Of a stretch of DNA of 34,938 nt, positions 1,717-20,419 are shown in pieces. Numbering within the stretch: the stretch's first letter is position 1; each line of letters starts with the position of its first letter. Where the stretch lies: the NCBI GenBank assembly GCA_019911795.1, contig JAIOJS010000183.1, positions 1-34,938 of the forward strand. Direction: 5' to 3'. The DNA is from Thermoanaerobaculia bacterium (GTDB lineage Bacteria; Acidobacteriota; Thermoanaerobaculia; Multivoradales; JAIOJS01). The notes beneath the pieces are model-generated. The model did no database searches. It was not told the origin of the DNA and saw only the letters and a program-made list of their open reading frames with translations. The position numbers and the translations under genes were made by a program.

Positions 1717-2047
1717 AGATCAAGACGTCTCTTGAGGCCGCTCCTCGCGGCGCCCATCCGGTTTTCCGTGAATCGTATCAGCACCGAGTTCTTGCCTATT
1801 GGTGAGACATCATGGCCTGATGTTGGCTCGGCCGCGGCGTCTTCCACCGGTGCGGAGGAAACCTCGACGATCTGCCCGGACGCCAAGAACCGATGATTCG
1901 CCCAGAGAGAGGGTCTCAGCCGAACAGTTGAGACGGGACAGTTAAGAAGACCCTTCACCATTGTCCTTTCACAAAGCGAGCCCAAACCAAGGATCGATGC
2001 CCATGGCTTGACATTTCCTCTGCAGCTCCTTTAGGGTCCCGTCTCAG

Positions 2048-2185
2048 ATGTATTTCACGGATCAATCCCTCACCAAGGCTCTCGTTATCGCTTCCTCCAG
2101 CGATCAGCGGAGCGTTGCGCTCGGCCTTGTCCTTGTAGTCCTACTTGTCAACGTCCTCATTATTGGGACGTCTGGGCCTCCATGA
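2048..2185 (+). CDS. Putative ilv leader peptide (45 aa): MYFTDQSLTKALVIASSSDQRSVALGLVLVVLLVNVLIIGTSGPP
   Basis: ATG 2048 to TGA 2183-2185. 14 of 17 residues in VALGLVLVVLLVNVLII are Val/Leu/Ile. Located directly upstream of a terminator hairpin and ilvE. Below the ORF track length cut-off. Confidence 0.75.
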   Translation: MYFTDQSLTKALVIASSSDQRSVALGLVLVVLLVNVLIIGTSGPP

Positions 2186-2216
2186 TCCGGTAAACAACGA
2201 TTTTCCGATTTCTAAG

Positions 2217-2249
2217 AGCCCCCAGCCGAGACCGGTTGGGGGCTTTTTT
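2217..2249 (+). terminator. Intrinsic terminator / attenuator hairpin in the ilv leader
   Basis: AGCCCCCAGCCG-AGAC-CGGTTGGGGGCT followed by TTTTT: 12-bp stem (one G-U), 4-nt loop, U tract, 28 nt upstream of the ilvE ATG. Confidence 0.85.
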
Positions 2250-2277: not shown

Positions 2278-3222
2278 ATGAAAGAGACAGCAGAGTGGTG
2301 TTGGATGGATGGTAGTTGGGTTCGCTGGCCGGAGGCGTCGGTCCACATATCGACGCACGCCTTGCACTACGGATCCAGCGTGTTCGAAGGGATCCGCGCC
2401 TACGAACAGCCCGAGGGCACGGCGGTGTTCAGACTCGGCTGCCATATGAAGCGGTTGATGAACTCCTGCCGATTGGCCCGGATGGTCCCGGAGAGCGTGT
2501 CGGCGGAGGAGATCGAACAAGCCTGTTTGGAACTCATCGAACGCAATCGCCACGGAAGCTGCTACCTACGACCGCTGATTCACCGTGGTGCGGGCGGTCT
2601 CGGGCTGGATCCGACGGGGCTACCGATCCAGGTGTCGATCCTCTCGTTCGAGTGGGGGGCATACCTTGGGGCCGACGCTCTGGATCAGGGGGTCGATGTG
2701 ATGATCAGCTCCTGGCGTCGCGCCGCACCGGATGCGATGGTGGCGATGGCGAAGATCGGTGGTCAGTACGTCGTCAACTCCCTGGTCAGCGTCGAGGCCA
2801 AGCAAAACGGGTACCACGAGGGAATCCTGCTCAACCACGCCGGCTATGTCTCGGAGGGAGCAGGAGAGAACGTGTTCGCCGTCTACGACGGTGTGCTGGT
2901 GACGCCGCCGGTCTCAGCTTCGATTCTCAGCGGAATCACCCGGCATACGGTGATGACCTTGGCCCGTGATCTTGGGATCACGGTGCGCGAGGAACGCCTG
3001 ACCCGGGACCGCCTGTGCATTGCCGACGAACTCTTCATGACCGGTACGGCAGCTGAAGTGACTCCGATTCGGAGTGTGGACCGCAGCCCCATCGGGATGG
3101 GGAACGTTGGCCCCTTGACCCGGCGACTACAGGTCGAGTTCTTCGACCTGGTCCACGGTCGTCTGGCGGATCGGCACAACTGGCTCCGCCCGGTTCCTCA
3201 GTTCGAGGCGTCGGTCGTCTAG
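2278..3222 (+). CDS. ilvE: Branched-chain amino acid aminotransferase
   Basis: MKETAEWCWMDGSWVRWPEASVHISTHALHYGSSVFEGIRAYE...; class IV aminotransferase motifs; RBS AAGGAG upstream of ATG 2278. The longer ORF start (TTG 2236) lies inside the terminator. Confidence 0.95.
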   Translation: MKETAEWCWMDGSWVRWPEASVHISTHALHYGSSVFEGIRAYEQPEGTAVFRLGCHMKRLMNSCRLARMVPESVSAEEIEQACLELIERNRHGSCYLRPLIHRGAGGLGLDPTGLPIQVSILSFEWGAYLGADALDQGVDVMISSWRRAAPDAMVAMAKIGGQYVVNSLVSVEAKQNGYHEGILLNHAGYVSEGAGENVFAVYDGVLVTPPVSASILSGITRHTVMTLARDLGITVREERLTRDRLCIADELFMTGTAAEVTPIRSVDRSPIGMGNVGPLTRRLQVEFFDLVHGRLADRHNWLRPVPQFEASVV

Positions 3223-14019: not shown

Positions 14020-16941
14020 CTACAGGCGGTAGGCGAAGAGGTACTTGTCGTCGCCGAGAAAATACAACCGATCCCCTACTACCAGAAGGAACTCGACTCT
14101 CCGGGTGGTTTCCAGCCGCCAGCGTTCCTCGCCTGAGTCGCGCTCTACGGCATAGAGATGCCGATCGTGACTGCCGAAGAGAACGAGTTCTGCGTAGGTG
14201 GCGATCTCAGTGAGGGCTCGGTTGGCAGTATGAAAGCGCCAGAGTTCTCTTCCGGTCGCAGCGTCCAGCGAGTAGACGTTGTAGTCACCGCTTCCGAAGA
14301 AGACTCGATTCTCCATCACCAGGGGTCGATACCAGATGTCCTCGCCGCCGGTGTTGAAAGTCCAACGGCGGGCGCCGGTATCGACGTCTACCGCCAGGAG
14401 GTCCCCATGGGAGGTGCCGAAGATCGCCGTGTTGCCGAAACCAACTCCGTCGCTGACGACGCACTCTCCGGCATGGGTCTTCCACAGGGCCTTTCCGTTT
14501 GGGATTCCCAAGGCCCAAATCGATTCGCCGCAGCTACCGACAACGACCCGATCCTTCAGAATCAGAGCCCCGCCGTTGATGAAGAGCTCGGTCAGTGTGC
14601 TCCAGAGGAGTTCGCCGCTTTGGCGATCGATCGCGTTCAGTCGGCCGAGGCGGTCCCCGAGATAGATTCGATCACCGGAGGCGACCGGCAGAGCCGATGT
14701 TTCGGCTCCCAGTTGACTCCGCCAAAGCTCGGCGCCGGACTGGGGGTCGAGGGCCCTGAGGGTGCCTTGGCGACTGCCGGCAACGACGCGGTCAGTGGCA
14801 AATACCGGCGCACTGGCGAAGCCATCCGCAACTGCGACGGTCCACAGCGGATCGCCACGTTCGGCATCGAAAGCCAGCACGCTGTCTTCCGTCGTGACGA
14901 AAAGGTTCCCATCGGCGAATCTGACCCTCGTTGGTGAGTGAATCTCGCGCTTCCAGAGAAGCTTCGGCCCAGTACCACTGGCCACTAGCCGGGGTGCCCC
15001 TGGATCAGGCCATTCGGCAGGATCGAAACGCGTGGCCGGACCGCTCGAAGGAAGCGCGTAGATCACTCCGTCGAGGCTGGCGAAGATCAGGAGCCCATCG
15101 AGAAGCAGCGGACGGTCGACCACCCATCCTCCGGTGGGAAAGTGCCAGAGCTCGGTACCGCTGACTAGATCGATAGCGTAGAGATTCTGATCGAGGCTAC
15201 CTACGAACAGACGATCTCCATCGATCGTGGGCCTTGATCCGATCGCGTCACGAGCCGTAAACGTCCAGAGGAGAGTGCCGTCCACCGCGTCCAGGGCCAG
15301 GATGCGACCGTCGCCGGTGCCTTGGTAAAGAACGCCGTGGTGGAGCAACGGAGCGATCCCGAGACGCGATTCGAGGGAACGACGCCACCGCTCGGTACCA
15401 TCTCGAGCCAGGCGGTAGAGAAATCCCCGGCTGGTGGCTACGAAGCTGTCACCCTCAGCGGTAAGTGCGACTCCGGCCACCGCGGAATCGACCGCCACGC
15501 GTGTTTCGGCGCGGCCCGTGGCCAGATCGATGAGAATGACTTCGCCACGGTCGGTCCCGACCAGTGCTCTATTCTCGGCCACTGAGATTGGGACGTGAGC
15601 CTCTCCTTCGGTGGAGACTCGCCACCGGGTTTCGCCGTCTCGAGGATCCAAACCGTAGACGTGCTGATCGAAGGACCCGACGACGAGAGTCTCGGGACCG
15701 ACCCAGCTGTAGGCCAGGGGAGAGGTCAACGGCAGCCTTCGGCGCCACAGCTCCGACCCAGTCGTCGTATCGATAGCGGCCGCATAGTCGTAGGTGGCGA
15801 GGTAGGCCACCGCTCCCGCGACCTGCACCGCATCGCGCACCGCTCCCGGGGCCTGATATCGCCAGAGTTCGGCTCCGGTACCGGATTCCAGCGCATAGAG
15901 GTAGTGATCGTCCGAGCCGACGAGCAAACCAGCCTCGAATGGAGTGGGATCGGACCAAACCTCCCCGCCGGTGCGTACTCGCCATCCCTCCCCCTCGTCT
16001 TGGAGCGGGGACGGTACTTTATCGAGGTCCGCACTCGGCGTATCTCGACGTGGGTCCGCGTGGACCAGATTGAGGGTAATTCGACGGGACAGTCTCCGTT
16101 CGGCGCCCAGGCTGTCGCGTACGTCGTCTTCGAGGACCCCGGCCCACAGATGTCGATCTCGGCGGCGATCGATCAACTGGCTACTCAGCCTCGCCCGACC
16201 GGTAGGGGAAAAAGAGAGGGTTCCTTCGAGAAAGGCCTCGGCCCCGAGTTGGCGGGCGATCTCGGTTGCGGGTAGTCCCGCCCGAGCGAGTTCGAAGACC
16301 GTCGACCGTGAGGACACGCCGAACTCACCCGAGGCGGCGAGCTCTGCCGTCAGGGTGTCGGTCAACGCATCCGCGAAGAGCTGATGGACGGGGTCGTCGG
16401 AGAGGGCCTCGATGGGTAGCACCACGATGGAATGTGGCCAGGACGAGTCTTCGGCCACCCGCCCGCCACGGACCCACCAGAACATCCCAACCAGTAGCAT
16501 CGCGACGACGAGCCCTAGTAGGGGCCGGAGAAGCTTGCGGGGCGGATCGAACACCGCATCTTGTTCGGGCGGGATGGAGGACTCCACACCCCCCATATCG
16601 GTTGCCGCCTCGAACGGCTCTACCGGCGCGACGAGACCGTATCCCTTCCGCGGAATCGTCTTGATGTACTGTGGCTCGCGGGCGTGGTCTCCGAGTGCGC
16701 GGCGGAGTTCCCACACCGCGTTGGTCAAGACTTCATCGGTGATGAAGGTGTCGCGCCAGACGCTGTCGAGGATCTCCTGCCGGAGGTGGATACGACTGGG
16801 CTCGGACGCGAGAAAAACGAGCACTTCCATCAGTTTCGGCTCGAGGTTCGAGGTCTCCCCCTCCCGCACGATGCAGTTCTCGCGCGGACGAACCGTCCAG
16901 TCACCCAAGAGAAACGGGGAGTCGTCCGAGACTTTCATCAC
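14020..16941 (-). CDS. CadC-like one-pass transmembrane transcriptional regulator: OmpR/PhoB winged helix, TM, TolB-like domain, tandem PQQ beta-propellers
   Basis: N-term FLLGDWTVRPRENCIVREGETSNLEPKLMEVLVFLASEPSRIHLRQEILDSVWRDTFITDEVLTNAVWELRRALGD...YIKTIPRKGYGL (Trans_reg_C); TM LLRPLLGLVVAMLLVGMFWWV; many LFVGSLDQNLYAIDLVSGTELWHF-type blades. Confidence 0.92.
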   Translation of the reverse strand: MMKVSDDSPFLLGDWTVRPRENCIVREGETSNLEPKLMEVLVFLASEPSRIHLRQEILDSVWRDTFITDEVLTNAVWELRRALGDHAREPQYIKTIPRKGYGLVAPVEPFEAATDMGGVESSIPPEQDAVFDPPRKLLRPLLGLVVAMLLVGMFWWVRGGRVAEDSSWPHSIVVLPIEALSDDPVHQLFADALTDTLTAELAASGEFGVSSRSTVFELARAGLPATEIARQLGAEAFLEGTLSFSPTGRARLSSQLIDRRRDRHLWAGVLEDDVRDSLGAERRLSRRITLNLVHADPRRDTPSADLDKVPSPLQDEGEGWRVRTGGEVWSDPTPFEAGLLVGSDDHYLYALESGTGAELWRYQAPGAVRDAVQVAGAVAYLATYDYAAAIDTTTGSELWRRRLPLTSPLAYSWVGPETLVVGSFDQHVYGLDPRDGETRWRVSTEGEAHVPISVAENRALVGTDRGEVILIDLATGRAETRVAVDSAVAGVALTAEGDSFVATSRGFLYRLARDGTERWRRSLESRLGIAPLLHHGVLYQGTGDGRILALDAVDGTLLWTFTARDAIGSRPTIDGDRLFVGSLDQNLYAIDLVSGTELWHFPTGGWVVDRPLLLDGLLIFASLDGVIYALPSSGPATRFDPAEWPDPGAPRLVASGTGPKLLWKREIHSPTRVRFADGNLFVTTEDSVLAFDAERGDPLWTVAVADGFASAPVFATDRVVAGSRQGTLRALDPQSGAELWRSQLGAETSALPVASGDRIYLGDRLGRLNAIDRQSGELLWSTLTELFINGGALILKDRVVVGSCGESIWALGIPNGKALWKTHAGECVVSDGVGFGNTAIFGTSHGDLLAVDVDTGARRWTFNTGGEDIWYRPLVMENRVFFGSGDYNVYSLDAATGRELWRFHTANRALTEIATYAELVLFGSHDRHLYAVERDSGEERWRLETTRRVEFLLVVGDRLYFLGDDKYLFAYRL

Positions 16942-19558: not shown

Positions 19559-20419
19559 TCAGACGAAGCGCATACGCACGACCCCCGCCGCCAACAGCGA
19601 CAGGACCAGTAGCGCTAGGCCGATCTGAGACAGAGTCGGGATGCCCACGATTCCGAGGATGCTGGGATCAAGGTCTCCGGAAAGTTGGTGGTCGAGACAG
19701 GCTTCCAGTTCTGTCTGCCAGGGGGCGTCGGCCCTGTGGTCATACTCCTCGTAAGACAACGTGCCGTTGGCGTCCACTTCGATCCGTTCCACGTTCCCCG
19801 TGCCGGCCGCAGGGTAGAGGTCCACGAATTCCTCCAGAAAGTAGACCCGGCTGAAGCCGTCAGGGCTGTGGAAGCAGCCCGTGTCGAAGTAGCCAAAGCT
19901 CGAATTGGGAAGGGTCGAGGAGATTTCAGGAATCAACTCAAAGAGCGATCTCACGATAGGAGTGTTGTAGCGACCGTCGAACTGGAAATAAGCCAAGGTT
20001 CCGGCGCTGAAGAAGTTGATAGAGAACACATCGAGCAGCTCGGTTAGGCAGTTGATGGATTCGTTCTGGCCGTTCTCTGCAGCGTCATGAGCTGCCTGGT
20101 CAACGAACACTATAAGCACGTCCTCGGGAATGGCCATCCCCCGATAGACGCTCCACAAGTCCAGCTCCGGCAGTTGCTGCGCGGCTCGGTCCAGGTCCGC
20201 ATGGATCCGGTTGTAGAGAGGCCCCTCGGCGACCAGAACGTCCGAGTACCAGAGCGCCATGAGCTCGGCCGATCTGTCGGCGCGCGGCGAGGCTGCGAAG
20301 TCGGCTGAGTTCACGAGATCGGCGGCGGCGAGGCAGGCTGCGGGTTGCGCGTGAAGATGCGACGGAGTCGCAACGATCAGTCCGAGCAGGCCGAGGAGAC
20401 AAGAGACGGGACGGTACAT
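19559..20419 (-). CDS. Secreted protein with C-terminal IPTL-CTERM-like sorting signal
   Basis: Signal peptide MYRPVSCLLGLLGLIVATPSHLHAQ; C-terminus IPTLSQIGLALLVLSLLAAGVVRMRFV. Confidence 0.85.
   Translation of the reverse strand: MYRPVSCLLGLLGLIVATPSHLHAQPAACLAAADLVNSADFAASPRADRSAELMALWYSDVLVAEGPLYNRIHADLDRAAQQLPELDLWSVYRGMAIPEDVLIVFVDQAAHDAAENGQNESINCLTELLDVFSINFFSAGTLAYFQFDGRYNTPIVRSLFELIPEISSTLPNSSFGYFDTGCFHSPDGFSRVYFLEEFVDLYPAAGTGNVERIEVDANGTLSYEEYDHRADAPWQTELEACLDHQLSGDLDPSILGIVGIPTLSQIGLALLVLSLLAAGVVRMRFV

What the first reader, a model, noticed from the sequence alone, without database searches (positions are those of the whole stretch)
2048..2249. Unannotated ilv-type transcription attenuator: BCAA-codon leader peptide followed by terminator
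A 45-aa ORF carries VALGLVLVVLLVNVLII (6 Val, 6 Leu, 2 Ile in 17 residues). It ends 31 nt before a 12-bp hairpin with U tract, 28 nt upstream of ilvE. This is the logic of the E. coli ilvL/ilvGMEDA attenuator, here in front of a differently ordered operon (E-B-N-C-D-A). I could not identify the antiterminator by eye; a short CTGGG (2172-2176) to CCCAG (2221-2225) pairing is only a weak candidate. A perfect TTGACA at 2008-2013 could be the -35, but its -10 would be poor and would leave only a few nt of 5' UTR.
Basis: partly seen in the sequence, partly recalled or inferred. Interest (0 to 1): 0.8.

Follow-up and report, generated by a model that had tools for sequence, protein, structure and literature searches.

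The report
Leader-peptide attenuator before ilv operon
In a little-studied Acidobacteriota bacterium, a tiny valine/leucine-rich gene and an RNA stop signal sit before the genes that make branched-chain amino acids and almost certainly switch them on only when those amino acids run short, and close relatives use the same design before other amino-acid genes.

Summary
The 45-aa ORF (2048-2185), the hairpin with U tract (2214-2249) and ilvE-B-N-C-D-A lie as described. The ORF is the most Ile/Leu/Val-dense of 586 short ORFs in the window and was matched by none of 5000 shuffles. The element is conserved: its covariance model matches in 40 of 72 genomes of the order and in other families of the class Thermoanaerobaculia (Acidobacteriota). 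In one genus, leader codons 6-16 vary only among Ile, Leu and Val. The weak CTGGG/CCCAG pairing is the core of the antiterminator: in relatives the last leader codons pair with the terminator 5' arm, and own arms fit better than swapped arms (0 of 20000 permutations). The doubted promoter has a conserved geometry: TTGACA-N16-18-TAnnnT ends 8-12 nt before the ATG in most leaders, so the leader mRNA is nearly leaderless, as in Corynebacterium ilvL. The same chassis precedes ilvB, ilvD, leuA and, with Thr codons, a thrA-like gene. Similar leaders precede ilvE in Chloroflexota. No Rfam family matches, and I found no paper on leader-peptide attenuation in either phylum. A new member of a known kind. 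Regulation itself is inferred, not shown.

The parts
2008..2013 (+). -35 element TTGACA of the leader promoter
   Evidence: Perfect consensus; same geometry in most orthologous leaders
2032..2037 (+). -10 element TAGGGT (TAnnnT), 18-nt spacer, ends 10 nt before the leader ATG; implies a 5' UTR of only a few nt
   Evidence: window and relatives; start site not mapped
2048..2185 (+). leader peptide ORF, 45 aa, stop TGA 2183-2185
   Evidence: identical peptide in contig C145 with 3 synonymous and 0 non-synonymous changes
2114..2164 (+). control codons, Val23-Ile39 (VALGLVLVVLLVNVLII)
   Evidence: I/L/V-only swaps in relatives
2172..2180 (+). antiterminator 5' strand CUGGG.CUC, inside the last leader codons
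2188..2207 (+). small inner hairpin CGG(U)AAA...UUU(U)CCG inside the antiterminator loop; 7 bp without mismatch in the C145 copy
   Evidence: pair probabilities about 0.5-0.99; sequences
2216..2225 (+). antiterminator 3' strand GAG..CCCAG, the same bases as the terminator 5' arm
2214..2247 (+). intrinsic terminator hairpin, 15 bp, about -28 kcal/mol
   Evidence: covariation in relatives
2244..2249 (+). terminator U tract
2278..3222 (+). ilvE, branched-chain aminotransferase, first regulated gene
   Evidence: NF005146 410 bits, TIGR01122 384 bits
3228..5057 (+). ilvB ORF, acetolactate synthase large subunit (family match starts at residue 41)
   Evidence: TIGR00118
4907..5668 (+). ilvN ORF, acetolactate synthase small subunit (family match starts at residue 67)
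   Evidence: NF008864 and TIGR00119
5700..6740 (+). ilvC, ketol-acid reductoisomerase
   Evidence: TIGR00465
6737..8482 (+). ilvD, dihydroxy-acid dehydratase
   Evidence: TIGR00110
8440..9549 (+). ilvA, threonine ammonia-lyase
   Evidence: TIGR01124

Best explanation
It is a ribosome-mediated transcription attenuator of the ilvEBNCDA operon. Transcription starts a few nt before the leader ATG, and a ribosome follows the polymerase through a Val/Leu-rich run. If charged tRNA-Val or tRNA-Leu is short, the ribosome stalls upstream of 2172. The last leader codons (2172-2180) stay free and pair with 2216-2225 as that strand emerges. This occupies the terminator 5' arm, and polymerase reads into ilvE. 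If charged tRNAs are plentiful, the ribosome reaches the stop at 2183-2185 and covers the antiterminator strand; the terminator 2214-2249 then forms and transcription ends. With no ribosome, leader RNA itself partly sequesters that strand, so termination is the default. Shown here by sequence comparison: the ORF, its codon class, the terminator, the promoter geometry and the conserved complementarity. Inferred: the start site, ribosome positions, kinetic competition and the amino acids sensed. The geometry suggests that stalls at Val/Leu codons up to codon 36-37 count, and that stalls at Ile38-39 would already mask the antiterminator.
For: ORF density. Conservation in relatives and R1 hits. 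Selection on codon class, not on the peptide: codons 6-16 of the 22-aa leader are always I/L/V in seven genomes, with swaps only among I, L and V, while the antiterminator codons GGG GCT AAC TAG are invariant; the two window-type copies differ only synonymously in the ORF (3 changes in 138 nt) against 33 mismatches plus gaps in the 110 nt upstream. Terminator covariation A-U/G-C, 99.5% of cells paired. Antiterminator: own arm beats swapped arm, mean -17.8 against -15.0 kcal/mol, 0/20000 permutations, up to 16 bp (L180). The simulated stall state gives the antiterminator as minimum-energy fold, P about 0.6-0.9 per pair; the ribosome-at-stop state leaves only the terminator. A Thr-rich leader on the same chassis precedes an aspartokinase gene, and Leu-rich ones precede leuA.
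Against: The window's own antiterminator is weak (-12.9 kcal/mol) and not significant alone (p = 0.365 against shuffles). At equilibrium the terminator always wins, so the model needs kinetics. The -10 TAGGGT is poor by E. coli standards. No transcript data exist. One relative (G047) has lost most control codons while keeping the terminator.
Confidence: 0.9

Rival explanations
1. The ORF encodes a real small hydrophobic membrane protein, and the hairpin only tunes operon level by constant partial termination.
For: I/L/V-rich stretches are typical of transmembrane segments; some leaders are 45-63 aa long.
Against: Length varies from 22 to 68 aa among ilvE leaders, with unrelated N-termini; swaps stay within I/L/V codons; the thrA leader is Thr-rich, not hydrophobic; the conserved C-terminal Gly-Ala codons match the terminator arm.
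Confidence: 0.04
2. A different RNA regulator (T-box, ppGpp or other riboswitch) controls the terminator, and the ORF is incidental.
For: T-boxes and ppGpp riboswitches are known before ilv genes in other phyla (general knowledge; PMC10272879 for ppGpp).
Against: No Rfam family reaches its cut-off in the window, and the permissive scan of 1950-2320 gives only weak, unrelated matches. The conserved parts are the codon class, the ORF end and the terminator, not an aptamer-like core.
Confidence: 0.03
3. The hairpin is only the transcription terminator of an upstream gene and has nothing to do with ilvE.
For: Generic GC-rich terminators are common; models R1/R2 also pick up ordinary terminators after unrelated genes (C509, C469).
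Against: No recognisable gene ends before it: the ORF 1112-1735 has no family match. A promoter and the leader ORF lie between. The arrangement stays in front of ilvE in many genomes with different upstream DNA.
Confidence: 0.02

Closest known systems
E. coli ilvL (ilvGMEDA) and ivbL (ilvBN) attenuators
   Same: Leader peptide rich in Ile/Leu/Val codons, terminator in front of ilv genes, alternative antiterminator (E. coli details from general knowledge).
   Different: No sequence relation tested or seen; antiterminator strand sits in the last codons at the stop; nearly leaderless start; operon order ilvE-B-N-C-D-A.
Corynebacterium ilvBNC attenuator (ilvL; ilvB-II motif; PMC10272879, PMC11857589)
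   Same: BCAA leader, terminator and antiterminator; start site one nt from the leader ATG in C. glutamicum, a direct precedent for the near-leaderless leader here.
   Different: 15-aa leader and a three-hairpin model; different phylum; that motif is in front of ilvB and was described in Corynebacterium.
ilvB-OMG and Leptospira ilvB motifs (PMC10272879)
   Same: RNA motifs before ilvB that probably carry BCAA-rich uORFs.
   Different: No Rfam hit of any ilv motif in the window; other gene and lineages.
Actinobacterial ilvB leader peptides (PMC1262725)
   Same: Candidate BCAA leader peptides with terminators found by comparison.
   Different: Actinobacteria; other genes and sequences.

Membership tests
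Ribosome-mediated (leader-peptide) transcription attenuator | Short ORF rich in codons of the amino acid made by the operon | tested here: met
   14 of 17 residues I/L/V, 0/5000 shuffles; conserved class-only swaps
Ribosome-mediated (leader-peptide) transcription attenuator | Intrinsic terminator between leader ORF and first gene | tested here: met
   2214-2249; covariation across relatives
Ribosome-mediated (leader-peptide) transcription attenuator | Mutually exclusive antiterminator exposed by an upstream stall and masked at the stop | tested here: met
   Met as a prediction for the family (0/20000) and in simulated states of the window; the window's pairing alone is not significant
Ribosome-mediated (leader-peptide) transcription attenuator | Promoter directly upstream of the leader ORF | tested here: met
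   TTGACA-N18-TAGGGT, geometry conserved; start site not mapped
Ribosome-mediated (leader-peptide) transcription attenuator | Readthrough depends on translation and on amino acid supply | not testable with these tools
   Needs reporter or Term-seq data
Rfam 15 leader, T-box or riboswitch families | Covariance-model score at or above the family's gathering cut-off | tested here: not met
   0 matches in the window; best sub-threshold hits unrelated

The most novel reading that the evidence does not exclude
Thermoanaerobaculia run a whole amino acid regulon with one reusable, nearly leaderless attenuator chassis: a -10 box about 10 nt before the leader ATG, interchangeable control codons (Ile/Leu/Val for ilvE, ilvB and ilvD; Leu for leuA; Thr/Met/Ile for thrA; possibly Pro or Arg for proB), then a GGGGGC antiterminator written into the last codons, the stop, about 30-40 nt and an AGCCCCC terminator. 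The conserved C-terminal Gly-Ala of the peptides is an imprint of RNA pairing. A proline- or arginine-sensing attenuator before proB would be a kind for which I know of no precedent.
Probability: 0.5. Interest if true: 0.65.

Novelty: new member of a known kind. Interest (0 to 1): 0.5.

Why it matters
Leader-peptide attenuation is known mainly from Proteobacteria and Actinobacteria. A 2010 survey (PMC2965389) knew of no such system outside those two phyla before its own His leader in bacilli, and noted that almost no predicted attenuators in Acidobacteria had a known function. Here a class of Acidobacteriota, and Anaerolineae-type Chloroflexota, carry well-conserved examples. This gives a predicted regulatory logic for branched-chain amino acid synthesis in organisms with little genetics. 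The shared chassis lets one ask how one attenuator was re-coded for different amino acids, and how near-leaderless translation couples to transcription.

Tried and rejected
Rfam at gathering and permissive thresholds gave nothing relevant. Per-locus antiterminator significance against shuffles was often poor, because any G-rich ORF end pairs with a C-rich arm; I used an arm-swap test instead. That test was not significant for Chloroflexota (p = 0.19), where arms are nearly identical and my arm window cut off the loop part; direct pair counting there gives 97.4% of cells paired but little covariation. Model hits C509 and C469 in the own genome were rejected: the ORF ends look like C-terminal sorting tails of larger proteins followed by ordinary terminators. 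Of four literature searches for attenuation in Acidobacteria or Chloroflexi, three found no paper and one found only the 2010 survey.

Full report
Observation. The ORF 2048-2185 encodes a 45-aa peptide with 14 Ile/Leu/Val in 17 residues; it is the most I/L/V-dense of 586 short ORFs in the window, and 0 of 5000 shuffles of the region match it. A 15-bp hairpin with a T6 tract lies at 2214-2249, 28 nt before the ilvE ATG at 2278. The operon is ilvE-ilvB-ilvN-ilvC-ilvD-ilvA.

Where it comes from. The window is contig C604 of a 5.4 Mb assembly. The same order includes genome G047, whose 4,634,923-bp contig and ilvE place match the record OX638294.1, an uncultured Thermoanaerobaculia bacterium (Acidobacteriota).

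Conservation. BCAA-rich leaders with terminators stand before ilvE in the same genus (G001), in two further contigs of the same assembly (C145, C38), in one genus (g3) of family f3 with over 20 genomes (MTRPAILLLLVLVLVLVTQGAN and variants), in other f3 genera and in family f6. A covariance model (R1) matches in 40 of 72 genomes of the order and, at a stricter cut-off, in 45 of 149 of the class, including families f13 and f18; some of the weak matches are ordinary terminators. Where ilvE lies inside another operon without a leader, a leader can stand before ilvD instead (G022, G040).

Selection on codon class. In seven g3 leaders, codons 6-16 are always I/L/V; the substitutions there swap only among these three, while the last codons GGG GCT AAC TAG are invariant. 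The two window-type copies C604 and C145 differ by 3 synonymous changes in the ORF and none non-synonymous, but by 33 mismatches plus gaps in the 110 nt upstream.

Antiterminator. In Acidobacteriota the last leader codons pair with the terminator 5' arm, for example GGGGGCU with AGCCCCC in g3, 16 bp in an ilvD leader (L180), and GGCUGGGG with CCCUCAGCC in C38. Across 19 representatives own-arm pairing is stronger than swapped-arm pairing (-17.8 against -15.0 kcal/mol, 0 of 20000 permutations). In the window the pairs are 2172-2176 with 2221-2225 and 2178-2180 with 2216-2218, around an inner hairpin 2188-2194/2201-2207. This is the minimum-energy fold when RNA from 2166 to 2226 or 2232 is free. 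The window's own pairing is one of the weaker ones and not significant alone. With the terminator 3' arm present the terminator wins at equilibrium, so the switch must be kinetic, as in other attenuators.

No-ribosome state. Before the terminator arm is made, the antiterminator strand pairs with upstream leader RNA with mean probability 0.43 in the window and 0.44-0.94 in relatives, so untranslated leaders should terminate by default. This is a prediction only.

Promoter. TTGACA with a TAnnnT-like -10 box ending 8-12 nt before the ATG recurs in leaders of ilvE, ilvB, leuA and thrA (17 nt in some ilvD leaders; g3 has a longer 5' UTR). The leader mRNA therefore probably starts a few nt before the ATG. 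C. glutamicum ilvL, whose start site is one nt from the ATG, is a precedent (PMC11857589).

A shared chassis. The same arrangement precedes ilvB, ilvD and leuA, and an aspartokinase gene with leader MNRAMLTGTLMTPMMITTTPTSTGAI. The genes named here beyond the window were identified by reading their translated starts, not by a family search, except proB. The window's own genome has a probable leuA attenuator at C182:5206. Four genomes have a similar element before proB with Pro- and Arg-containing uORFs; because GC-rich DNA favours Pro and Arg codons, what these sense is open.

Beyond the phylum. Named Chloroflexota loci (Anaerolineae and relatives) have BCAA uORFs before ilvE with the antiterminator GGCUUGGG just after the stop and CCCAAGCC in the terminator. 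Model R3 matches 21 of 199 genomes of the class of G150, including G150 itself; many of these matches are weak and were not inspected. Whether the two groups share descent was not tested.

Codon use. The leader uses no CTG or GTG, which make up 37% and 35% of Leu and Val codons in the ilv genes and the next ORF, and uses the rarer CTT, CTA, GTA and ATT. This is a lead on which tRNAs are sensed; g3 leaders do use CTG, so it is not general.

Verdict. Mechanistically this is classical ribosome-mediated attenuation. It is new by place (no report found for these phyla in the library searched, which lacks most subscription papers) and by its reusable, near-leaderless layout. Regulation by amino acid supply remains inferred.

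Noticed in passing
L170 (G000:C307:12895-12985), L198/L225 (G001:C2:194800), L190 (G022:C50:355184), L197/L229 (G040:C253:2435): Attenuator-like elements (Pro/Arg-containing uORF, antiterminator such as CTGGGGAGT, terminator with ACCCCC) before proB, glutamate 5-kinase. A leader-peptide attenuator for proline synthesis would be unusual; Pro/Arg richness may partly reflect GC bias.
   Followed up: partly
L174 (G040:C70:1649-1729): Thr-rich leader MNRAMLTGTLMTPMMITTTPTSTGAI and terminator on the same chassis before an aspartokinase gene (probably thrA-like).
   Followed up: partly
L195 (G000:C182:5206-5285): Probable leuA attenuator in the window's own genome (peptide ...QTQILFSLLLINFRGLEDD, terminator before a 2-isopropylmalate synthase-like gene).
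   Followed up: partly
L171 (G047:C1:3782371, 3784015, 3785546): Three tandem copies of the leader-terminator unit within 3.5 kb, with degenerate control codons (Leu changed to Pro); two of them precede copies of an unrelated gene with a signal-peptide-like start.
   Followed up: no
L032 (G000:C145:5946-6579) and L031 (G000:C38:6-1025): Two further ilvE-attenuator copies in the same assembly: C145 keeps only the first 159 codons of ilvE behind an intact leader; C38 is 76% identical and cut by the contig end. Duplications or strain mixture in the assembly.
   Followed up: partly
window 19559-20419, - strand: Protein ending in VGIPTLSQIGLALLVLSLLAAGVVRMRFV, which looks like an IPTL-CTERM sorting tail; similar tails elsewhere in the genome cause false hits of the attenuator models.
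   Followed up: no
window 14023-16941, - strand: 973-aa protein with a winged-helix Trans_reg_C domain joined to PQQ/BamB-type beta-propeller repeats, an uncommon regulator layout.
   Followed up: no
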